A DNA stretch of 64,000 bases from Erigeron canadensis (Eukaryota; Streptophyta; Magnoliopsida; Asterales; Asteraceae), in the NCBI RefSeq assembly GCF_010389155.1, contig NC_057764.1:5084001-5148000 (forward strand), written 5' to 3'. Numbering within the stretch: the stretch's first letter is position 1; the number at the start of each line of letters is the position of its first letter. The notes under the pieces were generated by a model that was given only the letters and a program-made list of their open reading frames with translations, was not told where the DNA came from and made no database searches. Made by a program: the position numbers and the translations under genes. Below, piece by piece: positions 3,115 through 58,504 of this stretch.

Positions 3115-3762
3115 TGTTGAGACCTGGATTCACTGATAAGACTTACTCGCTGACATGCATAGTCAGCAAGTCTTCAGTGAGTCCAGTGACTCTCTTCAAC
3201 GGGTTGCATGCTGACCAAAAGTTCATCATGGCGGGAAGCATTCAAATATCATGAAGACAAGAGTCACATGGTGATTCTTCCAACTGTAACGTGCCTTAAA
3301 TGGCAAAGATACATGTTGGGACTAAAGCAAGGGTTCTCTCTCTCATACCCGATTTGGTATAGAAGACAAAGGCACATGATTCAAGTACGATGAGCCAATT
3401 GGATGTCGACAACCACCATCAAGTCACAATCAAAGAAGGCTGTGTTGCCCCAAGTCTTCCTCTATATAAAGCAACACAGCCACATTGTATCAAGTGTGTT
3501 AGTCACCTTGAAAGTGTGTATCACTGGTAATTGTTTAAGTTTTTAGTGTGTCTAGGCTTAGCAATTACCATTGTTCTTTTGTATTCTTGTAAGTCAAGTA
3601 TGTAAGATCAACCATGTATTCATCGTTTAATCAATGATACATATGATTATCCTTGCATTGATGTACTACAATTGAACTTGATATTGTTCTTGTGATTTAC
3701 TTGCTTATTCACTTTCTTGTCTAATTTAAATAAAACATAAGTTGTGCATTCGTGGACCATCA
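3115..3762 (+). repeat. E1 5' LTR
   Basis: Begins TGTTGAGACC and ends GTGGACCATCA. Contains the TATA box at 3473-3480. Same family as the E2 (21193-21830) and E3 LTRs, but clearly a different subfamily from each. Confidence 0.95.
3438..3491 (+). promoter_or_regulatory. E1 LTR core promoter flanked by an 11-bp inverted repeat
   Basis: A canonical TATATAAA (3473-3480) lies between perfect 11-bp arms, GGCTGTGTTGC (3438-3448) and GCAACACAGCC (3481-3491). The same arrangement is at 15959-16002 in the 3' LTR. E3 keeps GGCTGTG/CACAGCC arms around its own TATATAAA, and E2 keeps only the right arm intact. Transcription would start about 30 nt past the TATA box, downstream of the right arm, so this is more likely a DNA-level cruciform or protein site than an RNA hairpin. 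That is inference. Confidence 0.7.
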
Positions 3763-3764
3763 AG

Positions 3765-3777
3765 TGGTATCAGAGCC
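3765..3777 (+). promoter_or_regulatory. E1 primer-binding site
   Basis: TGGTATCAGAGCC lies two bases after the 5' LTR and is the standard complement of the 3' end of plant initiator methionine tRNA. It primes minus-strand DNA synthesis. Confidence 0.9.
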
Positions 3778-3884
3778 ACCGTTCCTAAATCATTGGAACA
3801 AAATCTGTTTGCCTCCTTGTATTTTACATTTAAAACTTCTGTTCTTTAATTCTTCTTGAAATCTTCTTTTTCTTAAACAAAAAC

Positions 3885-6800
3885 ATGTCTTCTGTTCCCA
3901 GCCTTGTGAACACACGTGACTTTGGCTACGTGTCGACACCTCCTAAGTTCGAGCCCAAAGATTTTGGGTCTTGGAAGGAGAGGATGCTTCTTACATCTCT
4001 GGCGTGGAACCCTATTTAATGACCATATTAACTGAGGGTCCATACGTACCGATGTATGTCCAAAGGACTCCAGGAGCTACACCTGAAGCTCTTGAGATAG
4101 TCACTGACCTGGTTAAATCAGAGGTTCAATGGACAGATGAAGAAAGAAAGCTGGTAAATCTTGATGCTAGATTAAAAAACATGATTATCGTTACTCTTCC
4201 CACTGAAATCATGAAACTAGTCATCAAGTATCCCTCTTCAAAGGAAGTAAGGGACAGACTTGTCAGCACCTATGAAGGATCTGCTGACCTCATCAAAATC
4301 AAGAAAATTGATTTGAAAAGAGCTTATGAAAACTTCTTCTCTCTTCCTGATGAAAGTCTTGAGAGCACCTATACTCGCTTTAAAGGGTTGCTCAATGATA
4401 TGACAAATGTTGGCATTACCCATGATAACTTTGAGGTATGTCATAAATTCATCGACTCTCTTCCTCTTAAGTGGCAAAACTTAAGACAAACTCTTCGTAC
4501 TACGAAGAAAATCCAAGATTTTGATCTGGAAGAACTTTTTGGCACTCTTCAATTTGAAGAAAGAGCATTGGCTTAAAATATTCGAGCCTCTGCTGATGCC
4601 AAAAGACATGCAGGCCCTTCTTCTTCTTCTTCTTCTTCTTCTTCTTCTTCTGTCAGCATCTCCTCTCATCCTATTTCTGACCCTATCGCTCTTGTTTCTA
4701 CTGAGCCCATCGATCTCTATGATGGTGCCAGTACCTCTAATCTTCCAGCATCCATTCAAACCCTTATTTATGAGCTGGATGATGAAGAAAAACAAGATTT
4801 GTTTAATGACTTCATGGGCTTTGCCCTGGTTGCTTGTAGAAGATACTCCAGAAGGTGGAATAATCGCAAAACGGTTACTCCCCTCAAACCTCCTGTTGAT
4901 AAATCACAGGAAGAGTGCTGGAGGTGTGGTAGAAAAGGCCACTACCAGAAGGAGTGCAGAGTCTCCTTACCCAATCCTGCTACTCCTAAAACTAATCCTT
5001 CCAAATCTGCTGATGAATATAGGAACAAATACTATCAGCTGAAGGCTAAGGTGGCTGAAACAGAGGATGTCAAAGTTCCAGCAAAAGGTCTAATTGCTGA
5101 AGAACATGATTGGGCTGACTCTGATGATTCTTATGATGACGATTATGTTGATGCCATGTGCCTTATGGCACTTGCTGACAGTGATGCTCTAACAAAGGAT
5201 CAAGTCTCCTCTAGTCAGTGGGTGAACGTCACTGTTAAAAAGGTACACTCTCTTCTTTCTTCCTCTTCTAATCAAGACAAGACCAAAATTATTGAGTCCT
5301 TGTCTTGTGATCTTCAGTTCGTAGAAAGTCTACGTGCTGAACTTCAATCTAAACTTAACTCTGCTGGAGTAGAGTTAAGTGAAAAATCTGAAAAACTTGT
5401 GAAATTGAAAAATGTTCATGTTGAACTTCAATCTCATGAGTTGATGACTCAAAAACTTCAACTTGAGAATGAAACTCTCAAGGCTGAAGTTTCTAATCTA
5501 AAGAAGATTGTGACCTCCTGGTCAAAGGCTTCTAAATTTCATCATCAATGCTTGAGCGAGCAAGTCCCTGCTCAAGTACAGGCAGTAATTGGTGGCAATT
5601 TTGATGCTGCTGCCTCTATCGCTGACTCTTTTAATGATGATGTAATGCCTGAAATCTCCATTCCTCCACCCGGTTCATCTTCCATCTCTCAAGAAGAAAT
5701 GAGAAGGTGGTATTTTGTCAAGGGACAAAATGACTACTATGCTGAGATGGATTCTAAGGCTACAGCATCCACCAGTGTTCCCCCTTCCTCAAATGCTAAA
5801 AGTACCAGTACCTCAACCAGTACTTTTGACATGTTCTCCCATCTCCCCATTGTTGGCATGATGCCACATGAAGGGAGAATTCAACATTCACCTCCAAGAA
5901 CTTTTAAAGGGGATATCTCAAGTGATGGGTATGTACCCATTGCTCCTCAGCGTCTATCTACAAAAGGTGCTGAGCCCTTTAAAAGCACTATTGCTGCTCC
6001 TTATGACTATGGTACCCCTCAGCGGGTCAATCATGTCGTTCAGCAACACTCTAGTGCTCAATCTTCATCTCAGCTGGAACCTACCCATACAAATTCAATG
6101 TTTGATCATCAAATGAACAGAAGGGTTAGGTTCGCTGATGTAAGACACCAACAAGTACTTCCTACAAAGGCTGTACATGCTGATGCTCAAACTAATACAG
6201 TATCTGAATCAATGCCTTCAAAGTCAAATCTAAGGCATGTTACTCCTAAAAGAGGAAGACCCCCTTCTCAAAATAGATCTGCCACTCCTCAGCGAGGACA
6301 CTTTCCTCATCAGCAGGTAAGGCATATAACTCCTCAGCGAGAACATTTGCCATATCAGCAAATGAGACCTATTACTCCACAAAGAGGACAAGTGCCCTCT
6401 CAGCACAGTCAATCCTCAGTGTCCAACAGGGAGTCTCTACCTCATAGGCAAATGAGGTCAGTCACTCCAAAACGGCAAGTCAGATCCACAACTCCTATCC
6501 ATGAGAATCAGTCTCAGCAGGGTTCCTCTTCTTTCTATCCTACTGGAAAGCAAGCATGGACCATGATTAGAGGACATCAGAATCCTCAAAAATCATCATG
6601 GTGAATCCATCCTTGGTCCTGTTCCTCAATTGCCCCCGCCTAAATTTAGACAAAGGAATAAGTCCAAGTCTAAGCAAAAGAGCAAAGCTTCCTCTTCCTC
6701 TACTCCTCAAATAAATGAACTTACTCAGCGAGTAAATGATCTTTCCTCTCAGCTGAGGGACTTTCTTATTCAAAATCAAGGCAATCCCTCTGACAAAAAA

Positions 6801-7295
6801 TGCTATCTTTGTAGCAGCAGAGGACATGTTGCCTCTGAATGTGTTTTATACAGCCCAAGAGATGCTCAAGCGGTTGTATTTCAACCAAACATCTCTACAG
6901 CTGCTGAAACATCCTCCTCCTCTACACGGATCAGTGAGAACCTCTCTACTGAACCTGTTATTAGTGACACCTCCTCTGTCACAAATGCAAGCATTGTTGA
7001 ATACATTGTTGCTCAGCGCTTTGAAATTCCCCATTCTCAAAGGGTTATTTCAAATGCTTGGGGACAACCCTCAATGCTAGTTAAGTACAGCGCTCCTGAT
7101 GTAGTGAGCAACTATGCATATCTTCATAGTAATGAAACCAGCATAATGCCCATTAATGAAGATAACACTATTCCTGTCTCTGTGGGAGATCACATTACTC
7201 TTGAGGAGGCTCTCTCTGTAGAGCCAACATCCTCCGCTGAAGTACCTTCAGATAATCCTGCTAACATAGAAATGGATGAACAAAGTGAACCTTAA
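3885..7295 (+). pseudogene. E1 gag, long (unspliced) form, broken
   Basis: Start ATG at 3885 (MSSVPSLVNTRDFGYVS...). Read through its lesions, the frame runs about 1,137 codons. Order: an N-terminal copia Gag domain (about codons 1-230), a poly-Ser run from (TTC)n near 4617-4650, a CCHC knuckle CWRCGRKGHYQKEC (4916-4957), an acidic stretch, a coiled coil (about 5270-5540), 15-residue TPQRG repeats (6240-6410), a second knuckle CYLCSSRGHVASEC (6798-6840), then a stop at 7293-7295. Lesions relative to E2/E3: a 1-nt deletion near 3985, CAA-to-TAA at 4574, and a frameshift near 6600. Gag forms the virus-like particle and packages RNA. Everything after 5242 lies in the putative intron described separately. 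Confidence 0.85.
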
Positions 7296-7318
7296 ATCCT
7301 TTCTTTTCATCCATGCAG
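5243..7318 (+). other. Putative coding intron of gag-pol (GT...AG, 2,076 nt)
   Basis: The left edge reads AAAAAG|GTACAC and the right edge TTTTCATCCATGCAG|GGCTCG, a pyrimidine-rich acceptor with CTTAA about 25 nt upstream as a possible branch site. E3 (- strand, junction between 41444 and 41445) has AAAAAG joined directly to GGCTCG, exactly the spliced product, and its frame is open across the join. The segment continues the gag frame and carries the gag stop 23 nt before its end. Unspliced RNA would thus give long Gag, and spliced RNA would give a Gag-Pol fusion. E2 retains the segment, but its acceptor is changed to CTG. An alternative is a domain insertion or deletion whose ends look like splice sites by chance. 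Confidence 0.75.
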
Positions 7319-10300
7319 GGCTCGCTAGGTAAAGGAGTGTTGTATTTGGACAACGGTTGTTCAAAACACATGACAGGCTCTAAGTCCCTGGACAGACTGA
7401 AGGGTATGGTCTTCTTTCTAATGGCCTCATAAAATTCTCAAAAGTTGCTTATGTAAATGGATTAAAGCATAATCTCATCAGCATAAGTCAACTATGTGAT
7501 GCTGACTACAAGGTAATCCTTGATAAACATCAAGGCACTGTAGTAAACATCAACAAGGAAGTCGTCTTGGTTGCACCAAGAAAAAGAGATGTATATCTTG
7601 TAGACTTCACTCCTATCAAGACTGATAGTGAGACTTGTTTCTTTGCTAAGTCAGCATCCGAGGTAAATTGGTTATGGCACAAGCGTATGTCGCATGTGAA
7701 TTTCAAAACCATAAACTCACTGGCCAAAAAGAACCTTGTTCGTGGCCTTCCTCCTCTGTCCTTTGAAAAAGATAGGCTTTGTGGTGCTTGTGAAAAAGGC
7801 AAATGCCATAGAGCTACTTTCAAAACTAAACAAGCCAACTCTGTTAAGGGTTGCTTTCACCTTCTACACATGGACCTTTTTGGACCAGTGAATGTCCAAA
7901 GTCTAAAGGGTAGCAGATACAATTTAGTAATTGTGGATGAATATTCATGATATACTTGGACAATTTTTCTTAATTCTAAGAGTGATGCTGCTGATGAAAT
8001 TATCAAATTCATTAAGAAAATGGAAAATCTCAGCAGCATAAGGGTCAAAGAACTCAGAAGTGATCATGGCACTGAGTTTAGAAACCACACTCTTGAAACT
8101 TTTTGTGCTGATCAAGGGATTTCACAAAACTTCTCTTCCACTAGAACTCTTGAGCAAAATGGTGTTGCTGAAAGGAGAAATAGAACTCTTATAGAGGCAG
8201 CACACACTATGCTAAGTGATTCCTCTCTTCCCAGTAGGTTTTGGGCTGAAGCAGTCAACACTGCTTGTCACACTCAAAATCGATGTCTCATTGTTAAAAG
8301 ACATGACAAAACAGCATATGAAGTTTTGAGAGGAAAGAAACCTCAAATCAAATACTTCCATGTATTTGGCTGTCCTGTCTTTATTCTTAATATTAAGGAT
8401 CACTTAGGCAAATTTGATCCTAAAGCTGATGATGGCTACTTTGTTGGCTACTCTTCCATTAGCAAAGCTTTTAGAGTATTCAATACTCTAATTCAAAAAG
8501 TGGATGAATCCATTCATGTCACTTTTGATGAAAGCTCATCTGCTCTTAAAGATATCCAGCCATCTTCTACTGAAGAGATCTTCAATGAGTTCACTAATCC
8601 TCCTATGGAGGATGATGACTCATTTGTTGATGCTTCTTGCTCACCTCCTCTTGATTAGCAACTGACTGAGGATAGTTCAGTAGACCCTGAGCTAGAGCAA
8701 GTTGCTGCTCATATCTATACGATTGAGCCGGTTGAGCCTATCTTAAGGTCAATCCATGCTGCATCAGCCAAACCTAGATCACTGGCTGATGATGTGCAAG
8801 TTGATGACTCTGCTGATGATGAGTTTCATGATGCTTCAGCTAACACTGAAGACATGGTTGATAACTCAAATCAGTCAAATGGCTCCACTAATCAAACTCC
8901 TCTTGATCCTTCAATTACCATTGATTTCTCCTCCTATTCTTCTCCTGCTGATCCCATGCAAATATCTTCCGCTGCCACTCTAGGTTCATCAAGTGTCCCA
9001 TCACTTAGATGGACTTCAAGTCATCCTGCTTACCAAATTATTGGTGATCCTCAGCAGGGAATTGTGACTAGATCAGCGACTAGAAACACATGTCTATATG
9101 TTAACTTCTTGTCAATGATCACTCCTAAGAATATTGGAGAGGCCATGGTTGACCCATCGTGGGTTGCTGCCATGCAAGAAGAACTAACTCAATTCCAAAG
9201 ACAGCATGTCTGGTTCTTAGTTCCTCTTCCTCCTGGAAAAGAACCCATTGGAACTAAATGGGTTTATAGAAATAAGATGGACGAAAATGGTGTTGTTATA
9301 CGCAACAAGGCTAGGTTAGTAGCTCAAGGCTACCTTCAAGAAGAAGGTGTCGACTATGACGAAACCTTTGCTCCAGTGGCTAGACTTGAAGCAATACGCT
9401 TATTCCTGGCACATGCTGCTTATCGAAACTTCACTGTATATCAAATGGATGTCAAGAGTGCTTTCCTAAATGGAAAACTCGAAGAAGAAGTTTATGTGGA
9501 GCAGCCACCTGGTTTTGAAGATCTAACCAAGCCAAACCACGTCTATCGTCTTTATAAAGCATTATATGGTCTTAAACAAGCTCCCAGAGCTTGGTATGAC
9601 ACTCTCTCTGAATTTCTTCTTTCTCATGAGTTTCAGCGAGGATCCATAGACAACACCCTCTTTATCTATAGAAAGGGTGCTCATGTTCTCTATGTGTAAA
9701 TATATGTCGATGACATCATATTTGGATCCTCCAATAAGAAACTTTGCAATAAATTTAGCTCACTAATGTCTTCTCATTTTGAAATGAGTATGATGGGTGA
9801 GCTAACCTTCTTCCTTGGTCTACAAATTCGTCAGCTCACTGATGGCATCTTTATAAACCAAGAAAAGTATATACGAGACATGCTGGCCAAATTTGATATG
9901 TCTAATATCACCACAAAGCCTACTCCCATGTCTCCTCCAAACAATCTCCATGATGACCCTGATGGTAAGCATGTGAACCCCACTTTCTATCGTGGAATGA
10001 TTGGATCACTGATGTACCTCACAGCGAGTCGTCCTGACATTATATTTGCTACTTGCCTTTGTGCAAGGTATCAAGCATCACCCAGGGAGTCTCACCTTCT
10101 CGCTGTCAAGCGTATCTTCAAATATCTCAAAGGGACTTCCTCTCTAGGTCTCTGGTATCCCAAGGAGTCTAACTTTGACTTAGTTGCATACTCTGATTCT
10201 GACTATGCTGGTTGCATGTTAGATAGGAAAAGTACCAGTGGTGGATGTCAACTGTTGGGGGGAAGGCTGACTAGTTGGTCTAGTAAGAAACAGCATACAG

Positions 10301-10664
10301 TTTCCATCTCCACTACTGAAGCAGAGTATGTGTCTGCAGCAAGTTGTTGTGCACAAGTCCTTTGGATGAAAAATCAACTTGCTGACTATGACCTAAATTT
10401 TCCAAGATCTCCATCATGTGTGATAAGACTAGTGCTATTGCTATCACACATAATCCTGTTCAACATTCCAAAACTAAGCATATTGACATTAGGTATCACT
10501 TCATTCGTGATCATGTCATAAAGGGGGATGTTGAAATTTACTTCATTCCCACTGATGACCAACTTGCTGACATCTTCACTAAACCTTTAGATGAAAAAAG
10601 ATTCAAGGATCTCGTCAGCAGGTTGGGAATGTTAAATGGTGATTCTACAAGTTCAACAACATGA
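7319..10664 (+). pseudogene. E1 pol: protease, integrase, RT, RNase H (broken)
   Basis: Order seen: a protease motif LDNGCSKHMTG (DSG changed to DNG), followed by a ~60-bp deletion after 7389; the GAG-pre-integrase HKRMSHVN and [10 protein letters not shown] zinc region (7670-7810); the integrase core with [11 protein letters not shown] and [12 protein letters not shown] (8060-8180); RT from about 9120 ([40 protein letters not shown] at 9703-9714); and RNase H to 10664 (SDYAGC, STTEAEYVS, QLADIFTKPL). Damage: stops at 7948 (CGA to TGA), 8656 (CAG to TAG) and 9697 (CAA to TAA), and a 1-nt frameshift near 10405. In the intact family pol is fused to gag by removal of the 5243-7318 segment. Confidence 0.92.
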
Positions 10665-10757
10665 TCACTCATGTTTTGCTACCCATATTCCTCTTATGAA
10701 GATGAGCAGCGACTTCTTAAGTCAAAGTCATCAGCGAGCTCTTCCTTTTTACTCGCT

Positions 10758-11075
10758 GATCCCTGTTGCTTTGGGAAAAAGCAAAATAAAGGCAATGGAA
10801 AGCCAAAAGTTTCCATCCAGTCCACAGCAAACGGCTGTGGTAACGACACATAAAATCCGTTGATCCCTGATGCTTTGGGAAAAATCATAACAAAAGTAAT
10901 AGGGTGTTGAAAGTCCCTATCTAGTCCAGCAGCAAACGGCTGCTGGTAAACACTTCTAAAATCCCTTGATCCCTGATGCTATGGGAAAAAGCATAACAAA
11001 AGTAATAGGGTGCTGAAAGTCCCTATCTAGTCCAGCAGCAAACGGCTGCTGGTAAAGACTTTTAAAATCCGTTGA
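10758..11075 (+). repeat. Three ~106-bp tandem repeats with a covarying hairpin (E1)
   Basis: Repeat starts (GATCCCTG...) are at 10758, 10862 and 10968, so the period is 104-106 bp. Each unit carries a hairpin: CCACAGC/GCTGTGG (10822-10840), then CCAGCAGC/GCTGCTGG (10926-10946 and 11032-11052), all with an AAACG loop. The shorter stem in unit 1 has lost one base from each arm at the paired position. E3 has the same block on the minus strand (hairpins 37636-37656, 37742-37762, 37848-37868). It lies between the RNase H stop and the third ORF. Confidence 0.85.
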
Positions 11076-11447
11076 TGGCTGAAAATTTGCCAAAAATTGT
11101 TTAATGTCCATCAGCATCCACTCTTTGTCTTTGTGGTGCTGATTAAAACTTAGTAACCATTATTTCTTCAGAATTATATAAACTCTTAAGTGGATACCTC
11201 AATTTATCTGAGTGTATTCCACTACGTATTTTTGTTAATATTTTATTATATATATCTCAAACGGTTACCTCGATTTTCTCCCAAATGGGCAACTTGTACA
11301 CTGTACGCGCCTTATGAACTCGAGTACAGTTGAAATCGTGGTTCATATAGTCACATCATACCTCTCTCATACGTATACATACAGTGTCCTATAATTTTAA
11401 AATATTATTTTTTATGCCACGTATGAAAGAGAGTACACATGACAACT

Positions 11448-11490
11448 CACTTTTTGCAGTCATGGGACCCATATCCATGCCATATATATG
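11448..11490 (+). promoter_or_regulatory. Possible acceptor or promoter ahead of the third ORF
   Basis: CACTTTTTGCAG|TCATGGGACCC resembles a 3' splice site. It is followed by CCATATATATGCATATC, a TATA-like run about 130 nt before the ORF's ATG. E3 keeps both (CTTTTACAG and CATATATATGG, 37190-37225 on the minus strand), although neighbouring sequence has drifted. The third ORF is too far from the 5' end for simple scanning, so a subgenomic mRNA made by splicing or an internal promoter is inferred. Confidence 0.35.
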
Positions 11491-11613
11491 CATATCTCTT
11501 CCTCTTCACCTTCCTTTACGTTCATTTCTTTCGTTCTAAACTTTCAAAATCTTTCATATTCCCTCAAAAACATTCATCTTTCTAATCTTCTTGTATCTTC
11601 ACTCTCATCTAAA

Positions 11614-14600
11614 ATGGCTTCTTCATCTGCTCCTGAACACCAAAATCTTTCTTATCTCAACTCTAAAGTATATGATAATGAAGGCATCAATCCTTCTAAT
11701 CAAGTATCCTTCCAAGCTTCAAAACTGGTCATCAAGGCTAACAACTATCTGGGATCTGAAGAGATCCCATCTAAAACCAAAGGATACTTCTCTATGTTGG
11801 ATTTCATCATGGGATGTCCTGCCAGAAAGGCCATTTACTCTGATCCAAAGGAAATGTGTGTCCACCTCTTGAGAGAGTTTTGGTGGACATGTGATTATAA
11901 GGTTGCCAGTAGCACCATCACTGGAACTGTACTTAAAGGAGAACACACTATTTCCATCTCTGTAGACTCATTAAGAGATGCTCTTCGTCTTCCTAAACAA
12001 TCAGAAGAGCATCCATATGTGGAGTTGGTCCCCATTGGAGTGTGGAAGGAATGGTTGTTAACCATTGGGTATGGGACCAACATGGAACCTGCACAACCTG
12101 TGCACAACAACCCTCAGAAGAAATATCTGCCAGGAGTATGGAGGCTGCTGTTCACCCATGTAATCCAGTGTCTGGGTGGCAACAGTGGCTCTTTTGATCA
12201 AGCCACTGCTGCACAAATGCAGATGATATATCCGCTGGCAAATGGTTGCAACATTGACTTTGCCAGCGTAATTTTTGAAGACCTGAAGGGGAAGGTCACA
12301 ATAAAGAACAGATCAAGCTCAGTGCCCTTTACACGCTTTCTCTCATTGATTTTCAAGAAGGAGCTGAAGGAAAAATATCTCCATGAAGGGGCTCAATTCA
12401 TTCTCTCTCCAAGGGTAGCAAGCTCTGTTTATAAGATTCCCGCTTGTGACCCTGAGCAGTTCAATTCAAAGTATGCTGTGCTCACCCCAGCAATGAAACA
12501 GGTACTTTATTCTGTATATCCTGACGTCTATAGACCCAACCCGCCTGGAGCTGGTATGCTGATAATCCCCCCAGCAACCTCCAAAGCTCCCAAGAAAACC
12601 AAAACACTTGCATCTTCTTCCACTTCACCTCCCGCTGCTGTCCGAAAACAGTAGCAACGAGTATCAAAGGGCAAAACTACTAAGGTTAAGAAGTCCTCAC
12701 TGCCCACGGACAATAGAGACCCAACCAGCCCATCAGTAGCCTCAAAAAAGGCTGCTGATGAGAAAAAAGGTAACCGCAAGCAACCACCTCAAACTTCTGT
12801 AGGCGAGGTTGGTGAAGATTAATGGCCACCCCAGCCCATTAGAGTTGAGTCCACCGAACAAATCTTTCCCTCTTCTTCTTCTCAACCCTCTGAGTCGTTG
12901 TCAGCAGCCATATCATAGGTGATGCTAGAGACAACAAAGTTTACGGCCAATGATGCTTTGGTGATACAACACACTGAAGCTGAGGCACACGGTTCCCCTA
13001 CCCCTCTAAATTTCTCGTTGGATGAAAGGATGGAGGTTGAGGTTGGTAATGTAGAGGAAGAAGGAAATGTTGAAGAAGATAATGATGATGAGGAAAGTGA
13101 TCTTGAGTTGGGAGAGTTTGTTGCTGACGAATTCCAGTTGGATTCCTCCATCCAGGCTGATGAAATTGAGGAAAGTGATATGGAGGTTGAAGAGGAGGCT
13201 GCTGCTGCTGATGAAAATGCAGTAGTCATCAATGAAAATGTTGAAGCTGTTGCTGCTGATGACATTGCAGCAGCTGACAACGAAAATGTACAAGAAGCTG
13301 CTGCTGATGACAATGCAGCAGCTAATCCTGGAGAAACTGAGGTGCTAACTCTTGCTACTCCTGTCGATTCTCAAATTGCTGACAGGCTGGCCAGAGTGGA
13401 ACACCAGTTAAATGATCTCACCAAGGCTGCCACACTCGCTGTTCAACTTAAAACTCATGAAGATGACAGATTGGTGAAGATCTTGGAGAGCTGGTACAAC
13501 AAGCAAAACGAAAACACTGCCAGCATTGAGACTCTTAAAGAAAAATCTGTCTCTATGGCTGCTGATCAAGAAAAGCTGCGCACTTATACAAATGTTATCA
13601 AAAGGGATCAGCAGGCCATTGGTGGGTTCTCACGATCGCTATGCAAAATTGGAACTGCTGTACAGTTCTCAGCAAAGAAGGCATCCAGCTGCAGTGAATC
13701 TGCTGCTGCTGAAGTAAAAACAGTTGCTGACCTTGTTTCTCGTCTTACCTCCCAGGTTGAAGACAACACCAAGGCTATCAATGCCTTGGAAAGTACAGTG
13801 GCCAGTCTTCCTCCTCCTCAAGTCTCATTTACGGAGGAAGATCGTAAGTGCCAACAAAAGTTGGAGCAAGAGGTTGGGGACATTAAGAAGATGTTGTCCC
13901 AACTTCTTCAACAGCAGGCAGCTCCAACAGCGACAGTGGAGGTAGTAATTAATGATACTACCTCCAAGGGGGAGAAAGTTGATGCTGCCGTAATGGCACT
14001 TGTCAGTGAAGCTGTTAACAAAGCTGTAAATGATATATATGAAGCTTCAGCTGACAAGGTTGCAAGTGAAGAAAACACTGCAGCGGCCACTGATAAACAA
14101 GATGAACTGGCAATAGTGGCCATCAGTGAAGACAAGGTTAACTCTCCCCCTGCTAATGTTGAGGGGGAGACAAGAATTGATGAAGTTCCCCCTGCTGATG
14201 TTGAGGGGGAGACAGTTGGAGAGGCAAGTGCTGAGGGGGAGCAACAATTGATAGTTGCTGAAGCTCCCCAAATTGAAGAAGAGGAAATGAGTCCTCGTGC
14301 AGTCAGAACAGCTTGGGAAGTCGGATTTGCACAAGAAATGGCTAGGGACACATCCAGGGAAGTGCTCAATATTTTCCATCCTCGCTTCCTTGGAAATGCT
14401 GAAGTCTCTAAAATAACAGCAACACAAAGAAAGCAGCTGACTGATACTGGTTTTTTCAAGAGTCCCTCGCCTCTGACTGCACAAAATGTATCCATCACAT
14501 CCCCAGCAGGAAATCAGTTTCAAGTCATCGACATATTATCAATTACTGATGAGGGAAAAACTCAAGAGGAGGCCCTGGAGGAGCTGGATAGGCTGAAAGC

Positions 14601-15510
14601 AAATAAAGAAAATGAAAAGAAAAATCTTGAGTATATCAAGCAGCTGGCCCTCTTGGAGAAAGATGAGATGGATGGAGAGCAAAGAATGCGGCTGACCACT
14701 GGTGGGTCTGAAGCTCTCTACAGGCAAAAGCAAGCTGATGTAGAGCAGCTACTGAAGGAAAAGAGAGAAAAATTTGAAGTAGAGAAGGCCAAATGGTTGA
14801 AGATCATGAATGATAGGAAGAGGCCTGAGAGAATCACATCAGTTGAAGCTCATAAAGCTGCCATGGGAACTAAAACCAATCTGAAGTTCCTAAGGGAAGG
14901 ACACAGTGCCCCAACCAAGATTGAAGATGTAAAGCTGACCAACTTAGGGGCTTCAGAGTGGTATGAAATCTATATGATTATCAAGGATAAAAAGGCTGCC
15001 AGCTATGAACAACTTCAGGGGATGCTGAAAAATTACTTTGAAAAGGCACTGAAGTTTGAAACCAAGTTCAAGGCAGACCTACCCATGCTGAGGGCAGTCT
15101 TTGGATCTCCAGCAGCTGTCTCCTCTTCAGTAGGCAAGCGTGTCCTGAAAAGAAAGCGTGCCATGCAACCCTTGCCTGTTGACCTTCCTCCTATCTCTAG
15201 TGATGTTGGATTGAATTTGAGGCTTCCTCCCAGGTGCTCTTTTGAAGAAGGGAAAATACTTGAAGACCCTGCTGGCATATTCTTCCAAAATTTCAGAAAC
15301 GATCAACTCTTATTTAGAATGGCAGAAATTGAACAAGCATCTACTGGTTTCCTGATCAGCATCAGAAGAAGATTTGCAAAGATGATTAGTGCTAGATCTG
15401 TAATCAGCAAGATTGATGAGGAATTAATGAAGCCAACGAGAAGAGAAGATTCAGTGCTGAGAATTGCCAAGCAGGAAGACGCTTGGGAGATAGAAGCTGC
15501 TAATCTTTAG
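11614..15510 (+). pseudogene. E1 third ORF (aORF), ~1,298 aa, three nonsense changes
   Basis: Start ATG at 11614 (MASSSAPEHQNLSYL); the frame upstream is open by chance. The frame is uninterrupted for 1,298 codons except TAG 12652, TAA 12820 and TAG 12916, each a C-to-T change relative to E3. Residues 1-330 look globular (FWWTCDYK, KKYLPGVWRLLFTHVIQCLGG, RFLSLIF). Then come a Lys/Pro-rich linker, an Asp/Glu-rich stretch (about 13000-13330), coiled coils (about 13370-13900 and 14540-14800) and a C-terminal region with KRVLKRKR. No signal peptide or membrane segment is visible. From memory, the N-terminal part matches a 'putative plant transposon protein' family seen in Asteraceae copia elements; its function is unknown. 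It occupies the env position of Sireviruses but does not look like an envelope. Confidence 0.85.
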
Positions 15511-15623
15511 ATGTCAACTTTGTAAAAGCTTTATGCTTAGCTTGTAATTCACTTTGATGATATAAAAGACATCTTTTGTTCATATTACATTCTTCTTACT
15601 TATTCTGCAAGTCTCTTCAGCGA

Positions 15624-15635
15624 ATAGGGGGAGAT
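15624..15635 (+). promoter_or_regulatory. E1 polypurine tract
   Basis: AATAGGGGGAGAT directly precedes the 3' LTR. This purine run would resist RNase H and prime plus-strand synthesis. The E3 equivalent is ATAGGGGGAGAT on the minus strand at 33242-33253. Confidence 0.85.
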
Positions 15636-16283
15636 TGTTGAGACCTGGATTTGTTGATAAGACTTACTTGCTGACATGCATAGTCAGCAAGTCTTCAATG
15701 AGTCCAATGACTCTCTTCAGCGGGTTGCATGCTGACCAAAAGTTCATCATGGCGGGAAGCATTCAAATCACATGAAGACAAGAGTCACATGGTGATTCTT
15801 CCAACTGTAACGTGCCTTAAATGGCAAAGATACATGTTGGGACCAAATCAAGGGTTCTCTCTCTCATGCCCGATTTGGTATAGAAGACAAGGGCACATGA
15901 TTCAAGTACCATGAGCCAATTGGATGTCGACAACCACCATCAAGTCACAATCAAAGAAGGCTGTGTTGCCCCAAGTCTTCCTCTATATAAAGCAACACAG
16001 CCACATTGTATCAAGTGTGTTAGTCACCTTGAAAGTGTGTATCACTTGTAATTGTTTAAGTTTTTAGTGTGTCTAGGCTTAGCAATTACCATTGTTCTTT
16101 TGTATTCTTGTAAGTCAAGTGTGTAAGATCAACCATGTATTCATCGTTTAATCAATGATACATATGATTATCCTTGCATTGATGTACTACAATTGACCTT
16201 GATATTGTTCTTGTGATTTACTTGCTTATTCACTTTCTTGTCTAATTTAAATAAAGCATAAGTTGTGCATTCGTGGACCATCA
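15636..16283 (+). repeat. E1 3' LTR
   Basis: 648 bp, the same length as the 5' LTR, with about 18 substitutions and no indels by eye. TATATAAA is at 15984-15991 with its inverted-repeat arms intact. Confidence 0.95.
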
Positions 16284-21192: not shown

Positions 21193-21830
21193 TGTTGAGT
21201 CTTGGATTCGCTGATAAGACTTGCTCGTTGACGTGTGTCATCAGCGAGTGTTCAGCGAGTCGAGTGACTCTCTTCAGTGGGTTGTATGCTGCCCAAATTG
21301 TTAGTCAAGGCGGGAAGATTTCAAACCAGATGAAGACAAGAGTCACATGGTGGTTCTTCCAACTTTAAAATACCTTAGATGGCAAAGGTACAAAACAAGG
21401 GTTTTCTCTCTCATACCCGTTTTGGTAAAGAAGACAAGGGCTCTTACATGGAAGTACAAGGAGCCAATGGGACGTCGACAACCACCATCTATCACCATCA
21501 AAGGAAGGCTATGTTTCCCTAATTCCTCCTCTATAAAAGGCAACACAGCCGCATAGTATCAAGTGTGTTTGTCACCTCAAAAGTGTGTGTCACTTGTAAT
21601 TGTATAAGTTTTTAGTGTGTCTAGACTTAGCAGTTACTTTGTTCATTTGTATTCTTGTAAGTCAAGTTTGTAATATCGATCATGTATTCATCGTTTAATC
21701 AATGATACATATGATTATACTTGCATAGATTTATTATATTTGAACTTGTCATTGTTCTTATTGATTACCTTCTTATTTAATTTCTTGTCTAGCTTAATTA
21801 TAACATCAGTTGTGCATTCGTGGACTGTCA
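21193..21830 (+). repeat. E2 5' LTR
   Basis: TGTTGAGTCTTGG...GTGGACTGTCA, 638 bp, homologous to the E1 LTR but a different subfamily. The TATA region reads CTCTATAAAAGGCAACACAGCC; the left arm of the inverted repeat is degraded (GGCTATGTTTC). The primer site TGGTATCAAAGCC follows at 21833, with one mismatch to the E1 site. Confidence 0.85.
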
Positions 21831-21947
21831 AGTGGTATCAAAGCCAGGTTCCTAAATCATTGGAACACGATCTGTTTGCCTTCTTGTGTTTACATTAATT
21901 TATGTTCTTATCTTTTCTTGAAAACCTCTTTTCTTTAAAACAAGAAC

Positions 21948-24900
21948 ATGACTTCTGTTCCAACTCTTGTGAATCAATGTGACTTTGCTTACGTATCCAT
22001 CCCTCCTAAATTTGAGCCCAAAGATTTTGGGTCTTGGAAGGAAAGGATGCTTCTTCACATTGTTGGTGTGGAACCTTATTTGATGGCCATTCTCACCGAA
22101 GGTCCCTTTATACCCACTAATGTCCAAAGGACTCCAGGTGCTACACCTGATGCTCCTGAAATCGTGACTGACCTGGTAAAGCCAGAAGTCCAATGGACTG
22201 ATGAGGAGCGTAAGCTAGTCAATCTTGACTCAAGGCCTAAAAACATGATCATCACCACCCTCCCTACTGAGGTGATGAAACTCGTCATCAAATATCCCTC
22301 TTCTAAGGAAGTATGGGATAGACTGGTCAGCATCTATGAAGGATCTGCTGACCTCATAAAGACCAAGAAAATAGACCTAAAGCGGGCCTATGAAAACGTC
22401 TTCTCTCTTCCTGATGAAAATCTCGAGAGCACCTATACCCGTTTCAAAGGGTTGGTCAATGACATGACTAATGTTGGCATTACTCATGATAACTTTGAAG
22501 TATGCCACAAATTCATCGATTCTCTTCCTTTTAAGTGGCAAAACCTGAGACAAATCCTTCGTACCACCAAGCAGATCCAAAATTTCGACCTTGAGGAACT
22601 GTTTGGCACTCTTCAATTTGAAGAGAAGGCTTTGGCTCAAAATATTCGAGCCTCTGCTGAATCTCGAAGATATGTTGGCTCTTCTTCCTCTACCAGCACT
22701 TCTTCTTACCCTATTTCTGACCCTCTTGCTCTTATCTCTGTTGAGCCCATCAATTCCTATGATGGTGCCAGCACCTCAAATCTCCTTGATCCTATTCAAA
22801 CTCTTGTTGACGAGCTTGATGCTGATGAAAAACAAGAGATGTTTAGTGACTTCATGGAATATGCTCTTCTTGCTGGAAAGAAATATTCCAGAAAATGGAA
22901 CAACCGTAAGTCGGTTGCTCCTTACAAGCCTCCTGTTGACAAATCATAAGAAGAATGCTGGAGGTGTGGCAGAAAAAGCCATTACCAAAAAGGAGTGCAG
23001 GGTCTCCATTCCCATCCCTGCTGCTACTAAATCTAACCCTTCTAAGTCTGCTGATGAATACAAGAACAAGTACTATCAACTAAAGGCTAAGAATGGCTGA
23101 AGCTGAGGAGGCCAGAGCACCAGCCAAAGGGCTGGTCGCTGAAGAACATGATTGGGCTAACCCTGATGAGTCACATGATGAAGATTATGTAGACACTATG
23201 TGCCTGATGGCACTCGCTGATGGTGAGGCGCTGACAAAAGATCAAGTCTCATGTCAGTGGGTTAATGTCACTGTCAAAAAGGTACATTCTCTTCTCTCCT
23301 CTTCAGAAGATGATAAGACCAAAATTATTGAGTCTTTATCATGTGATCTTTAGTATGTAGAAACTTTACGTGCTGAACTTCAATCTAAACTTAACTCTGC
23401 TGGCAATGAGTTAAGTGATAAAAATGAAAAACTCTTGAAATTGAAAAATGTTCATGTAGAACTTCAATCTCATGAGTTAATGACTCAAAAACTTCAACTT
23501 GAAAAAGAAAAACTCAAGGCTGAAGTTTCTAATCTGGAGAAGATTGTGACCTCTTGGTCAAAAGCTTCCAGGTTTCATCATCAATGCCTAAGTGAACAAG
23601 TCTCTGCTCAGGTTCAAGCAGTGATTGGTGGCAACTTTGACACTGCTGTTTCACTTGCTGACCTGTTTCACGATGATGTTAAACCTGAAATTTCTATTCC
23701 TCCTTCCTCTTCTATCTCTCATGAAGAGATGAAAAAGTAATACTTTGTCAAAGGACAAAGTGATTACCACTCTGAAATGGATGCTGGTGCTACCCCTTCT
23801 TCTTCCACCAACGAATCCTCTACCTCTAATGAGGTAAAAGGTGCTAATTCTTCTAATAACACTAATGCTTTTACTTCTTAGTAGCTTCCCAACAAATCTA
23901 CTGAACCCTTTAAGAGAAGCAAGGTTGTTGTGTCCTATGACTACAACACTCCTTTGAGAGTGAATTCAGCCAGTCAGCAACCCACATGTGCTCCATTAAC
24001 TTCATCTCAACAAGAGCCTGCTCATGTTAGTCATAAGGATGACCAACATGACCGTCTAATGAAAAGACGTGTCAGGTTCGCTGATGATAGACGTCAGCAA
24101 GTACTTCCCTCAAGGGATTTACCTGCTGATGGAATATCTAATCATCAGATCCCTCCTCAAAACTTGTCTATGTCAACTAGGTCCACTCCTAGGTTTAACA
24201 CTTCTCAAAGAGGAAGGTTCCTTTCTCAAAACAGGTCTACTACTCCTCAGCGAGGACATTTGCCATATCAGCAAGTGAGACCTGTTACGCCTCAAAGAGG
24301 ACACTTGCCACATCAGCAAGTGAGACCCACAACCCCACAGAGAGGACAAATGCCTAATCAGCATTCTCAATCCTCCATGTCAAACAGAGAGTATCTGCCT
24401 CATAGGCAAATGAGGTCAGCAACTCCCAATCATCAATCTAGGCTAATTACTCCTAGAAGAATACCTCAATCTCAACAAGGTCCCTCCTCTTCTTCCTACC
24501 CTGCTGGAAGACAAGCATGGATAACCATTCAAGGATCACAAAATCTTTATGATCACAATGATCAATCCATTCTTGGTCATGTTCCCCAGATGCCTCCTTC
24601 TAGACTTAAACAAAGGAACAAATCAAAGTCTAAGCAAAAAGGCAAGGCATCTTCCTCTAATCCTTAGATCAATGAGCTTACTCAGTGAGTCAATGATCTA
24701 TCATCTCAGCTGAGAGACTTTCTCATTCTGAACCAAAAAGGCACTTCCTCTGTTAAAAAATGTTATCTATGTAGCAGCAGAGGACATGTTGCCTCTGAAT
24801 GTGAAAGTGTAAGCTCAAGGAATGCTCCAGAGGTTGTTACACAACCAAATTCGTCTATGTCTGCTGGAGCATCTTCCTCGTCAACTAGGGTCAGTGAAAA

Positions 24901-25279
24901 TCCTTCTCCTGAACCTAGATCCAGTGAACCCTCTTCGGTCACTGAACCAAATGTTGCTGAGTATATCTCTTCCCAGCACATTGAAATTCCTCATTCCCAA
25001 AGGGTCATTTCCAATGCATGGGGACATCCAGCTATGCTGATTGAATACAGTGCTCCTGGCGTAGTCAACAACTGTGTATATCTTCAAAGTAATGAGACTA
25101 ACATCATGCCCTTTGAAGAAAATGATCCCACCTTTGGAAATGTCAATGTGGGTAACTTTCCCACTCTTAAGGATGCTCTCTCAACAGAGCCAACAACTAC
25201 CTCTAATGAACCTACCCTTAACCCTGCTAACAGGGCCATTGATGATTTCCAAAGTGAACTTGCCTATATCCTTCTATAA
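21948..25279 (+). pseudogene. E2 gag, long form, broken
   Basis: ATG at 21948 (MTSVPTLVNQCDFAYVS). The first 333 codons are open, giving the best-preserved N-terminal Gag domain in the window. Then TAA at 22947 (a Gln codon elsewhere), a frameshift within the first zinc knuckle (near 22970-23000) and TAG at 23351. The coiled coil (23435-23740), TPQRG repeats (about 24180-24360) and second knuckle CYLCSSRGHVASEC (24761-24802) remain recognisable, with further stops at 23737, 23879, 24665 and 24686. The terminal stop at 25277-25279 lies 11 nt before the position matching E1's acceptor. Confidence 0.85.
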
Positions 25280-25290
25280 TATCCATACTG
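23282..25290 (+). other. E2 copy of the putative intron, acceptor lost
   Basis: The donor AAAAAG|GTACAT is intact at 23282. The position matching E1's CATGCAG|GG reads CATACTG|GG, so the AG is gone and the pyrimidine tract is weaker. Length 2,009 nt. This copy could not be spliced at that site. Confidence 0.65.
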
Positions 25291-26581
25291 GGATCGCTGG
25301 GAAAAGGAGTGTGGTATTTGGACAGCGACTGTTCAAAACACATGACTGGCTCTAAGTCCCTGCTGGATAACTATACAGAGGCACCTGATCCTACTGTAGT
25401 GTTTGGTGATAACTCCACTAGACAAACTGAAGGGTATAGTATGGTCTTCTTTCTAATGGTCTTATCAAAATTTCCAAAGTTTCTTATGTAAATGGATTAA
25501 AACATAATCTCATAAGCATCAGTCAACTTTGTGATGTTGACTACAAAGTGATTATTGATAAGCATCAAGGCACTGTTGTAAATATTAACAAGGAAGTCGT
25601 CTTGGTAGCACAAAAAAAAAGAGATGTATATCTTGTAGACTTCACTCCTATCAAAACTGATAGTGAGATTTGCTTCTTTGCAAAGTCAGCATCTAAATTA
25701 AATTGGTTATGGCACAAGCATATGTCGCATGTGAATTTCAAAACCATTAACTCACTGGCCAAAAAGAACTTTATTCGTGGCCTTCCTCCTCTCTCTTTTG
25801 AAAAAGATAGACTCTGTGGTGCTTGTGAAAAAGGTAAAAGCCATAGAGCTACTTTCAAAACAAGCCAACTCTATTAAGGGCTGTTTTCATCTTCTTTCAT
25901 ATGGACCTTTTTGGTCCAGTAAATGTCCAAAGTCTAAAGGGTAGCAAATACACTTTAGTTATCGTGGATGAATATTCACGATATACTTGGACTATCTTTC
26001 TTCATTCCAAGAGTGATGCTGCTGATGAAATAACTAAATTTATCAAGAAAATGGAAAATCTCAACAGCATACGGGTTAAAGAACTTAGAAGTGACCATGG
26101 CACTGAGTTTAGAAACCACACTCTTGAATCTTTTTGTGTTGATCAAGGGATCTCACAAAACTTCTCTTCTACTAGAACCCCTGAGCAAAATGGTGTTGCT
26201 AAAAGGAGAAACAGAACTCTTATTGAGGCAGCACGTACCATGCTCATCGAGTCTTCTCTGCCCAGCAGGTTTTGGGCAGAAGCTGTCAGCACTGCCTCCC
26301 ACACTCAAAATCGTTATCTTATTGTCAAAAGACATGACAAGACAGCATATGAAATTTTGAGAGGCAAGAAACCTCAAATCAAATACTTCCATGTATTTGG
26401 TTGTCCTGTCTTCATTCTTAATAACAAGGATCATCTTGGAAATTTGATCCTAAAGCTGATGATAGTTATTTTGTTGGATATTCTGCCATCAGCAAAGCTT
26501 TCAGAGTATTTAATACTTGTCTTCAAAAAGTGGATGAGTCCATTCATGTCACTTTTGATGAAATCTCATCAGCTCTTAAAG
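25291..26581 (+). pseudogene. E2 pol, 5' part: protease and integrase
   Basis: The protease motif reads LDSDCSKHMTG (the Gly of the DSG triad is Asp). A frameshift follows near 25440, then the GAG-pre-integrase domain ([18 protein letters not shown]), another frameshift near 25870, and the integrase core 25901-26450 ([32 protein letters not shown]). A 1-nt loss near 26440 breaks the C-terminal part. The solo LTR then interrupts it. Confidence 0.85.
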
Positions 26582-29112: not shown

Positions 29113-29117
29113 TAAAG

Positions 29118-30388
29118 ATATCCAATCCTCCTCTACTGAAGTTATATTCAATGAGCTCACTGATCCTCCTATCGAGGATACTGACTCATTTGTTGATGCC
29201 TCTTGCTCACTACCTCCTGTCAATTAGCAACCTACAAAGGAAAGCTCAGCTGAAGCTGAACTTGAGCAAGTTGCTGCTCATATCTACACGATTGAGCCAG
29301 TTGAGCCTATTTTGAGATCAATCCATGCTGCATCAGCCAAACCTAGATCTCTGGCTGATGATGTGCAAATTGATGACTCTGCTGAAGAAGAGTTTCATAG
29401 TGCTTCAGCTAATGATGAAGATTTGGAGTCTGCTGATGACCCCAACACAACAAATGACTCGAACCAGTCAAATGGCTCCACTGATCAAAGTCCTATTGAA
29501 CCAACACTAACTATAGATCTCTCTTCCTATAATTCTCCTGCTGATCCAATTCCCCAATCTTCCGCTGCCCCTCTACTTGGTTCATCAAGTGTTCCAGCAC
29601 TTAAATGGACATCTAGTCATCCTACTCATCAAGTAATTGGTGATCCTCATTATGGTATTATGACTCGATCAACGACTAGAAATTCATGTCTCTATGTCAG
29701 TTTCTTGTCAATGATCACTCCAAAAAATATTGGAGAGGTTATAGTTGACCTATCTTGGGTTGCTGCCATGCAAGAAGAACTAACTCAATTCCAAAGACAG
29801 CATGTCTGGTTTTTGGTTCCTTTACCTCCTGGCAAAGAACCCATTGGAACTAAATGGGTTTATAGAAATAAAATGGACGAAGATGGTGTTGTTATTCGTA
29901 ACAAGGCTAGGCTGGTTGCACAAGGTTACCTTTAGGAAGAAGGTGTTGATTATGATGAAACCTTTGCTCTAGTGGCTAGACTTGAAGCTATAAGATTATT
30001 CTTGGCACATGCTGCTTATCGAAACTTCACCGTATATCAAATGGATGTAAAGAGTGCTTTCCTAAATGGAAAACTCGAAGAAGAAGTTTACGTGGAGCAG
30101 CCACCTGGTTTTGAAGATCCAGCCAAGCCACACCATGTCTATCGTCTGTATAAGGCCCTATATGGTCTTAAACAAGCTCTCAGAGCTTGGTATGACACTC
30201 TTTCTGAATTCTTTCTTTCCAATGAGTTTCAGCGATGATCCATTGACAACACCCTCTTTATATATAGAAAGGGTGTCCATGTCCTATATGTCCAAATCTA
30301 TGTAGATGACATTATCTTTGGATCCTCCAGCAAGAAACTCTGTAAGAAGTTTAGCTCACTGATATCCTCTCACTTTGAGATGAGCATA
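29118..30388 (+). pseudogene. E2 pol, 3' part: linker and truncated RT
   Basis: Continues from 26581. It covers the integrase-RT linker and RT up to the palm ([33 protein letters not shown] near 30299-30320). Stops at 29225 (TAG), 29933 (CAA to TAG) and 30236 (GGA to TGA). It ends at 30388 within ...HFEMSI, where intact copies continue to the RNase H domain. Confidence 0.85.
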
Positions 30389-32586: not shown

Positions 32587-33241
32587 TGATGGTCCACGAT
32601 TGCACAACTTATGTTTAATTTAGAATACAAGACATAAAATAAGCAAGAAAGTAAACAACAAGAACAATGTTAAGTTCAATTGCAATACATCAATACAAGG
32701 ATAATCATATGTATCATTGATTAAACGATGAATACATGGTTGATCTTACACTTGACTTACAAGAATACAAAAGAACACAGATAATTGCTTAGTCTAGGAA
32801 GATAAGAAAAACATAAGCAATTACACACTTTTAGAAGGTTAGACGCACTTGAAACAATGAGGCTGTGATGCTTTATATAGGGGAAGACTTGAGTCAACAC
32901 AGCCTGCTTTGATTGTGACTTTATGGTGGTTGTCGACTTCCAATTGGCTCATGGTACTTGAATCATGTGCCTATTGTCTTCTATACCAAATCGGGTAAGA
33001 GAGAGAGAGAACCCTTGCTTTGGTCCCAACATGTACATTTACCATTCAGGGCAAATTACAGTTAGTTAACCACCATGTGGCCTTTTTGTCTTTGTCTAGT
33101 TTGAAAATTTCCCGCCAAGACAAGCTAGCTCAGCATGCATCCCGCTGAAGATGTCTCTTCGTCTGCTGACAAATTGTTAGGAGACTTGCTGACGACATGT
33201 TTCAATTTTCAAGTCTCCTTCAGCGAATTCCAGACTTAACA
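32587..33241 (-). repeat. E3 3' LTR (left on the plus strand)
   Basis: Plus-strand ends are TGATGGTCCACG...CAGACTTAACA. The TATA box (CTATATAAAG on the minus strand) lies near 32871-32880, within GGCTGTG/CACAGCC arms. Confidence 0.95.
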
Positions 33242-58489: not shown

Positions 58490-58504
58490 TTCTTCCCCTT
58501 GGTG

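What the first reader, a model, noticed from the sequence alone, without database searches (positions are those of the whole stretch)
5243..7318. A coding intron that switches between long Gag and Gag-Pol in a copia family
E1 carries a 2,076-nt GT...AG segment that continues the gag frame, adds a coiled coil, TPQRG repeats and a second zinc knuckle, and ends with the gag stop 23 nt before the AG. E3 lacks exactly this segment, and its join (AAAAAG to GGCTCG, 41444/41445) is what splicing would give. Unspliced RNA would make a ~1,130-residue Gag; spliced RNA would make a shorter Gag fused to Pol. Splice-controlled Gag output is known in copia elements (Drosophila copia, Arabidopsis Atcopia93), but there the spliced RNA favours Gag; here splicing would make Gag-Pol. 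I know of no description of this arrangement.
Basis: partly seen in the sequence, partly recalled or inferred. Interest (0 to 1): 0.92.

Follow-up and report, generated by a model that had tools for sequence, protein, structure and literature searches.

The report
Coding intron separates Gag from Gag-Pol
A jumping gene in a daisy-family plant carries a removable stretch that itself encodes protein, so leaving it in should make a long shell protein and cutting it out should join a shorter shell protein to the copying enzymes; copies with the cut already made show that the cut has happened.

Summary
E1 carries a 2,076-nt GT…AG segment (5243-7318); E3, a complete copy with its own target-site duplication, lacks exactly that segment. 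In the window's own genome 15 of 40 scored places span E3's join, and all 15 have the same join. They are not one lineage: E3 is 97-99% identical to eight segment-bearing copies of its subfamily on both sides of the join, and one clade of segment-less copies is rejected (p 6e-7). Splicing followed by reverse transcription is the simplest cause. The segment is coding: dN/dS between subfamilies is 0.23-0.33 in the gag frame, 0.78-1.44 in the other frames, and one copy is open for 671 codons. Donor GT is present in 41 of 41 distinct copies, acceptor AG in 33 of 37. Tanacetum gene models use equivalent sites. Best reading: a Sirevirus-like copia element whose unspliced RNA makes a long Gag and whose spliced RNA makes Gag-Pol. 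Ogre (Ty3/gypsy) uses similar logic, so this is a new variant of a known kind. No RNA was seen; Pol initiation at a nearby ATG remains a rival.

The parts
3115..16283 (+). E1: LTR retrotransposon, copia type, 13.2 kb; LTRs 3115-3762 and 15636-16283; TSD CATCT; PBS-like TGGTATCAGAGC right after the 5' LTR (name of the motif recalled)
   Evidence: LTR identity 97.2% and flanks; Pfam gag, integrase, SH3, RVT_2 order
4916..4957 (+). first zinc knuckle CWRCGRKGHYQKEC, in the part shared by both predicted products
   Evidence: sequence; zf-CCHC E 0.002, 18.6 bits, below the cut-off 20.8
5240..5248 (+). splice donor AAG|GTACAC (cut between 5242 and 5243)
   Evidence: GT present in 41 of 41 distinct copies read (copies were found by similarity to this region)
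5243..7318 (+). coding intron: Gag C-terminal extension
   Evidence: absent exactly in E3 and 14 further places; dN/dS 0.23-0.33 in the gag frame between subfamilies
5270..5590 (+). predicted 107-residue helix (coiled-coil region) encoded in the intron
   Evidence: AlphaFold2 model, helix 10-116, pLDDT 83-97 by block
6230..6480 (+). TPQRG/TPKR-type repeats encoded in the intron (approximate limits)
   Evidence: translation
6801..6842 (+). second zinc knuckle CYLCSSRGHVASEC encoded in the intron
   Evidence: translation; zf-CCHC 18.4 bits, below the cut-off 20.8
7293..7295 (+). stop codon of the long Gag frame (TAA), 23 nt before the end of the AG
7294..7318 (+). pyrimidine-rich acceptor AAATCCTTTCTTTTCATCCATGCAG|
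   Evidence: AG present in 33 of 37 distinct copies
7313..7315 (+). ATG in the pol frame just before the acceptor (basis of the re-initiation rival)
   Evidence: an ATG lies in the pol frame within 15 codons upstream, with no stop between, in 33 of 37 copies
7319..10518 (+). pol exon of E1 (protease start, integrase, SH3, RVT_2), broken by stops and a deletion
21193..30387 (+). E2: more diverged relative that keeps the segment (23282-25290) with the acceptor mutated (ACTG); right limit approximate
32587..43550 (-). E3: complete intron-minus copy, LTRs 32587-33241 and 42896-43550, TSD CAATC; its gag and pol are broken
41444..41445 (-). E3 exon-exon join AAAAAG|GGCTCG; frame reads WVNVTVKK|GSLGKGVWYLDSGCSKHMTG

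Best explanation
The segment is a retained coding intron of a Sirevirus-like Ty1/copia element. Unspliced RNA is translated into a long Gag that carries the coiled coil and second zinc knuckle and ends at a stop just before the 3' splice site. When the spliceosome removes the segment, the same start codon gives a shorter Gag fused in frame to protease-integrase-RT. Splicing efficiency would then set the Gag to Gag-Pol ratio. Occasional reverse transcription of the spliced RNA creates intron-minus insertions such as E3. Shown in DNA: exact, repeated absence at one join in several lineages, and coding constraint in the intron. Inferred: splicing as the cause, translation of both RNAs, their ratio, and the benefit to the element.
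For: Same join in 15 of 15 intron-minus copies. All listed half matches break at that place: 25 of 25, 28 of 28. E3 is 97-99% identical on both sides of the join to eight segment-bearing copies of its subfamily, and at most 94.5% to the other intron-minus copies. Its 301 nt downstream of the join are identical to six segment-bearing loci, and its 300 nt upstream are 99.7% identical to one. L042's nearest listed kin are segment-bearing half matches at 96-100%, mostly 98% or more, against 97% for its closest intron-minus copies. One clade of intron-minus copies is rejected, p 6e-7; starred branches force at least 5 changes on the gag-exon tree and at least 3 on the pol-exon tree. E3 has LTRs and a TSD, so it is a retrotransposed copy. 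The insert is under purifying selection in the gag frame only, and one copy is open over 671 codons. Donor GT 41 of 41, acceptor AG 33 of 37. Of 134 proteins with a recognisable exon-2 start, nearly all Tanacetum gene models, 24 join it directly to the equivalent of the donor residues.
Against: No RNA or protein evidence was available. The donor GTACAC is weak against the usual plant consensus (recalled; no scoring program was run). The insert as a whole is not U-rich: 27.8% T against 26.7-29.9% in the flanking coding stretches, though its first 300 nt have 32.7%; the BARE1 intron is U-rich (PMC3735527). Four of 37 copies lack the AG. An ATG in the pol frame sits 6 nt before the join, so Pol might be made without splicing. 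The Tanacetum joins are gene models, not cDNAs, and most models in the set join other residues to exon 2 (85 of 134). Erigeron models P0001 and P0003 use the donor with another acceptor, 75 nt in. Copies were found by similarity to the queries, so the donor count is biased upward.
Confidence: 0.72

Rival explanations
1. The join is made by splicing that serves no purpose. Spliced RNAs are sometimes reverse transcribed and give dead-end copies, like human L1 SpIREs, while Pol is normally expressed from the unspliced RNA by some recoding.
For: Intron-minus copies look few: 15 places found, against 424 and 432 first-look candidates for the donor region (overlapping sets, 40 scored in each). L1 SpIREs are a documented precedent (PMC5860796, abstract and outline). 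Recoding, bypass or internal entry has been proposed for Sireviruses (PMC2829016 passages; PMC5009743 passage).
Against: Both splice sites and the in-frame fusion to protease are kept across subfamilies with dS up to about 1 and recur in Tanacetum models. The stretch between the Gag stop and the join does not code for Gag, yet its last ten bases (ATCCATGCAG) are the main form in the three subfamilies whose acceptors were read; part of that would also follow if Pol starts there.
Confidence: 0.15
2. Pol is made from the unspliced RNA by termination and re-initiation at the ATG of CATGCAG, 6 nt before the join, giving a free Pol that begins MQGSLGKG.
For: An ATG lies in the pol frame within 15 codons upstream of the join, with no stop between, in 33 of 37 copies. 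The CATGCAG ATG begins 17 nt after the Gag stop in E1 and 25 nt after it in the open copy L063. Proteins P0164 (MQGSLGKS) and P0172 (MQGDYKKA), from sources without a name, start there.
Against: It does not explain the intron-minus copies or the conserved donor. In six Tanacetum proteins (P0083, P0119, P0153, P0219, P0220, P0238) the residue before exon 2 is Q but no Met is adjacent (LNVFVQ, LLFVQ), and the Lactuca protein P0226 reads ALQ|GQ.
Confidence: 0.1
3. The intron-minus copies come from one ancient segment-free element, spread by recombination, so no splicing is needed.
For: Some intron-minus copies do group together (L042, L043, L045; L038-L040; L033, L034).
Against: One clade is rejected on the gag exon, and the pol-exon tree forces at least 3 changes. 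E3 is near-identical to segment-bearing copies right up to the join on both sides, leaving little room for a patch from a divergent intron-minus donor.
Confidence: 0.03

Closest known systems
Ogre (Ty3/gypsy, Tat lineage) of legumes
   Same: [quoted passage not shown] of the primary papers Steinbauerova 2008 was not held, and Neumann 2003 was not looked up).
   Different: Other superfamily. In the passage the Ogre intron lies between GAG-PROT and RT, and the region between its ORFs averages 274 bp; it is not described there as coding. Here it lies inside the Gag region, before protease, is 2 kb long and encodes conserved Gag sequence.
Sireviruses (SIRE/Maximus lineage of Ty1/copia)
   Same: Enlarged Gag with a central CCHC knuckle and a downstream coiled coil; in many, pol in a +1 frame relative to gag (PMC2829016 passages; PMC5009743 passage).
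   Different: The passages read invoke recoding, bypass or internal entry for Pol; they mention no splicing between gag and pol.
EVD/Atcopia93, BARE1 and Drosophila copia
   Same: Alternative splicing sets the Gag output of a copia element (PMC8892269 passages; PMC3735527 passages).
   Different: There the spliced RNA makes Gag only; here it should make Gag-Pol.
L1 SpIREs
   Same: Insertions of a spliced element RNA, with the intron missing (PMC5860796 abstract).
   Different: LINE element; splicing is reported to inhibit retrotransposition there and its products to be generally dead ends.

Membership tests
Ty1/copia superfamily | copia-type gag and integrase upstream of RVT_2 reverse transcriptase, between LTRs with TSDs | tested here: met
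   PF14223, rve, SH3_retrovirus and RVT_2 in that order in E1; LTRs and 5-bp TSDs
Sirevirus (SIRE/Maximus) | large Gag with CCHC knuckle followed by a coiled coil | tested here: met
   knuckle at 4916-4957 (sub-threshold Pfam score); 107-residue predicted helix downstream
Sirevirus (SIRE/Maximus) | pol in a +1 frame relative to gag (many members, not all) | tested here: inconclusive
   in the open copy L063 the insert is 2,047 nt, so pol is +1 to the long Gag; the other copies read have indels and mixed phases
Sirevirus (SIRE/Maximus) | position in an RT tree with reference SIRE elements | not tested
   no reference set was at hand
Sirevirus (SIRE/Maximus) | extra ORF after pol (env-like in some) | tested here: inconclusive
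   ORFs 11443-12654 and 12919-15510 exist; only a weak Transposase_32 match for the first, none for the second
Sirevirus (SIRE/Maximus) | conserved non-coding motifs | not tested
   -
Ogre-type splice-controlled polyprotein | Gag part and Pol part in separate ORFs joined by splicing | tested here: inconclusive
   separate ORFs and the exact join are seen in DNA; RNA not available
Ogre-type splice-controlled polyprotein | Ty3/gypsy, Tat-lineage element | tested here: not met
   copia-type domains; so it may work like Ogre but is not one
EVD/BARE short-Gag splicing | splicing yields a Gag-only RNA | tested here: not met
   the join in E3 keeps gag in frame with protease
Spliced integrated element (SpIRE-like) | complete insertion lacking exactly GT...AG, with target-site duplication | tested here: met
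   E3; the other 14 places were not checked for LTRs or TSDs

The most novel reading that the evidence does not exclude
Splicing of a conserved coding intron is the normal way in which a large Asteraceae branch of Sireviruses, in Erigeron-like, Tanacetum and lettuce relatives, makes Gag-Pol from a gag and pol that lie in different frames. It would answer for this branch the old puzzle of how Sireviruses express Pol, with the Sirevirus-specific coiled-coil part of Gag confined to the unspliced product.
Probability: 0.5. Interest if true: 0.82.

Novelty: new variant of a known kind. Interest (0 to 1): 0.7.

Why it matters
Sireviruses are described as abundant and plant-specific (PMC2829016, abstract in the listing), and how those with separate gag and pol frames express Pol is treated as an unresolved puzzle (PMC5009743 passage). 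A December 2025 review says plant LTR elements generally lack introns, names Ogre and EVADE as notable exceptions and also mentions BARE1 (PMC12786077 passages). Here the unspliced and spliced products would share a start but differ in a whole assembly domain, and the genome keeps a record of splicing in its intron-minus copies. The idea can be tested at once with public RNA reads.

Tried and rejected
1. Single old intron-free lineage: rejected on the gag exon, with the pol exon agreeing and E3 near-identical to intron-plus copies.

2. Reverse-transcriptase jump between short repeats: only 2-3 nt are shared at the two ends, and such jumps would not be expected to choose one site in several lineages (inference).

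3. Segment as a late insertion into gag: unlikely, since homologous sequence sits at the same place in Tanacetum Gag proteins.

4. U-richness as support for splicing: not found for the insert as a whole. No splice-site scoring program was available; donor strength is judged against a recalled consensus.

5. Published Sirevirus 27-nt hairpin at the gag/pol border: within 300 nt of the acceptor the hairpin shared by the four copies tested is a 9-bp one over the DSG codons, 26 nt after the acceptor; L061 and L063 also have a 13-bp one inside the insert. I cannot say whether either is the published motif.

6. RNA evidence in print: a sunflower long-read study (PMC9784723, passages) names SIRE once, among transcripts without LTRs, and shows no splice data in the passages I saw. 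Searches for a prior description were (listings and abstract starts; passages of seven papers read); none showed a coding-intron Gag/Gag-Pol switch in copia. That library holds only open-licence papers. Oberlin 2017, Gao 2003, Steinbauerova 2008 and Havecker 2005 were not held and are known here only through other papers.

7. Genome-wide pattern counts of the join and acceptor, a search with the E1 acceptor region and one with L038 did not complete, so copy numbers are lower bounds.
Full report
What is there. E1 is a 13.2-kb copia-type LTR element (LTRs 97.2% identical, TSD CATCT; domains). Between its gag zinc knuckle and its protease lies a 2,076-nt segment bounded by AAAAAG|GTACAC and TCCATGCAG|GGCTCG. 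The gag frame runs into it. E3, on the other strand, is a complete insertion (LTRs 98.0% identical, TSD CAATC) that lacks exactly this segment and reads WVNVTVKK|GSLGKGVWYLDSGCSKHMTG across the join. E2 keeps the segment but has lost the AG. All three are broken elsewhere.

It is a family feature. The window's own genome (426 Mb; the tool does not name the species, and size and protein hits suggest Erigeron canadensis, an inference) was searched with the donor region: 40 scored of 424 candidates, 96-100% identical. With the E2 version, 40 were scored of 432, at 86-100%, all covering the donor (the two sets overlap in at least one place). With the E3 join, 40 were scored of 781: 15 span the join, at 83-100% identity, and the other 25 break exactly there. 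All 15 have no gap or extra base at the join. With the join of a third subfamily (L042), 41 matches were listed from 40 scored of 1,405 candidates: 13 span it, all among the 15, and 28 of 28 half matches end at the join. Counts are lower bounds, because only the best candidates are scored.

The losses are many. On both sides of the join E3 is 97-99% identical to eight segment-bearing copies of its subfamily (L061-L066, L068, L069), 89-93% to two E1-type segment-bearing copies (L002, L007), and at most 94.5% to other intron-minus copies. A tree of 56 rows on the gag exon needs 6 changes, at least 5 forced by well-supported branches. In it E3 sits in a 100/100 clade with 10 segment-bearing rows (9 copies, since L058 and L068 are the same one), and L035 in a 97/94 clade with two. 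Holding all 15 intron-minus copies together is rejected (p 6e-7), as is holding the five nearest together (p 4e-9). The pol-exon tree of 31 rows needs 5 changes, at least 3 forced; one copy is in it twice (L050, L063), two rows fill under half of the columns, and L044 and L034 are long branches. L042's listed half matches to segment-bearing copies are 96-100% identical (mostly 98% or more), against 97% for the closest intron-minus copies. Some intron-minus copies do group with each other, so the number of events is not the number of copies. Precise absence at one GT…AG in several backgrounds, in at least one copy with LTRs and a TSD, is what splicing followed by reverse transcription gives.

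The intron is coding. I compared ten copies, of those fetched, with one whose insert is open for 671 codons (L063). dN/dS in the gag frame is 0.23-0.26 against six E1-type copies and 0.29 against E2 for the 5' half, and 0.33 and 0.24 against E1 and E2 for the 3' half; the two other frames give 0.78-1.44. Close copies (dS under 0.06) are uninformative and give 0.37-1.13 in the gag frame. Gag and pol exons give 0.06-0.18 in the between-subfamily comparisons, so the insert is less constrained than they are. A 107-residue helix is predicted, and the 5' half is homologous to Tanacetum and other Gag proteins at the same place. In the open copy the insert is 2,047 nt, so pol lies +1 to the long Gag frame, and the Gag stop ends 31 nt before the end of the AG. 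Of the nine inserts translated, that one is open throughout; the others carry stops or shifts.

Splice sites. GT is present in 41 of 41 distinct donors read (these copies were picked by similarity to that region). AG is present in 33 of 37 distinct acceptors (which includes those; two further fetched stretches, L073 and L090, did not span it and are left out). The stretch before AG is pyrimidine-rich in the three subfamilies read. E1's Gag stop TAA lies inside CCTTAAAT, and E2-type copies have TAA in CCTAAAT at the equivalent place (their frames were not translated); the likeness to a branch site is recalled, not tested. Against: the donor is weak by the recalled consensus, and the insert as a whole is not U-rich (27.8% T; first 300 nt 32.7%; flanks 26.7-29.9%).

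Other plants. Of 278 proteins fetched (only the best of 1,318 and 262 hits were listed in the last two), 134 have a recognisable exon-2 start. Of these, 24 join it directly to the equivalent of the donor residues (for example WVKISMRK|CDIRKPIWYLDSG), 85 join some other upstream residue to the same start, 21 have Q before it and 4 begin at or near it. By another rule, 107 motif matches around the donor fall into 20 joined to YLDS, 31 running on as V.TLL and 56 others. Nearly all are Tanacetum gene models, so this shows that gene finders repeatedly accept the same sites, not that RNA was seen. P0001 and P0003, named for Erigeron canadensis, use the same donor with an acceptor 75 nt in.

Mechanism. 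Unspliced RNA should give the long, Sirevirus-like Gag; spliced RNA should give Gag without that extension, fused to Pol. A weak donor would keep splicing partial and Gag in excess (inference). The genomic RNA, being unspliced, would normally be the one packaged; E3-like copies are the exceptions (inference). The main competing route for Pol is re-initiation at the ATG of CATGCAG; an ATG in the pol frame is present upstream in 33 of 37 copies. The two routes are not exclusive.

Known relatives. Ogre shares the logic (PMC6317226 passage). BARE1 and EVD splice to make Gag (PMC3735527 passages; PMC8892269 passages). Sireviruses are described with large Gag, a coiled coil and, in many, pol in +1, with bypass or internal entry proposed (PMC2829016 passages; PMC5009743 passage). 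A 2025 review gives Ogre and EVADE as notable exceptions among plant LTR elements, which generally lack introns, and also mentions BARE1 (PMC12786077 passages). Hence: a new variant of a known kind.

Noticed in passing
window 31675-32390 and 45236-45951: A 716-bp direct repeat, 98.5% identical, flanks E3 on both sides, as if E3 had landed inside a small LTR element.
   Followed up: no
window 11443-15510 and 33378-37348: Both E1 and E3 carry long ORFs after pol (up to 876 aa) with at most a weak Transposase_32 match; what they encode is open.
   Followed up: partly
window 7345-7365: A 9-bp hairpin with a 3-nt loop covers the protease DSG codons 26 nt after the acceptor in E1, E2, L061 and L063; it may be the inverted repeat reported at Sirevirus gag/pol borders.
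   Followed up: partly
L002, L007, and G000 C5:14583524-14584392: Copies with large internal deletions of the intron that keep both ends (inserts of 1,338 and 1,561 nt; about 366 nt judged from two neighbouring half matches).
   Followed up: no
L054 and L079: A CAG to TAG change at the acceptor keeps the AG but puts a stop behind the ATG in the pol frame; such copies could separate splicing from re-initiation if they are expressed.
   Followed up: no
window 54472-62923, minus strand: A further copia element (RVT_2, integrase, gag_pre-integrs and Pol_BBD domains) with its own direct repeats.
   Followed up: no
P0005: A protein named wall-associated receptor kinase-like 2 of Erigeron canadensis carries a stretch of this family's Gag, probably a fused gene model.
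   Followed up: no
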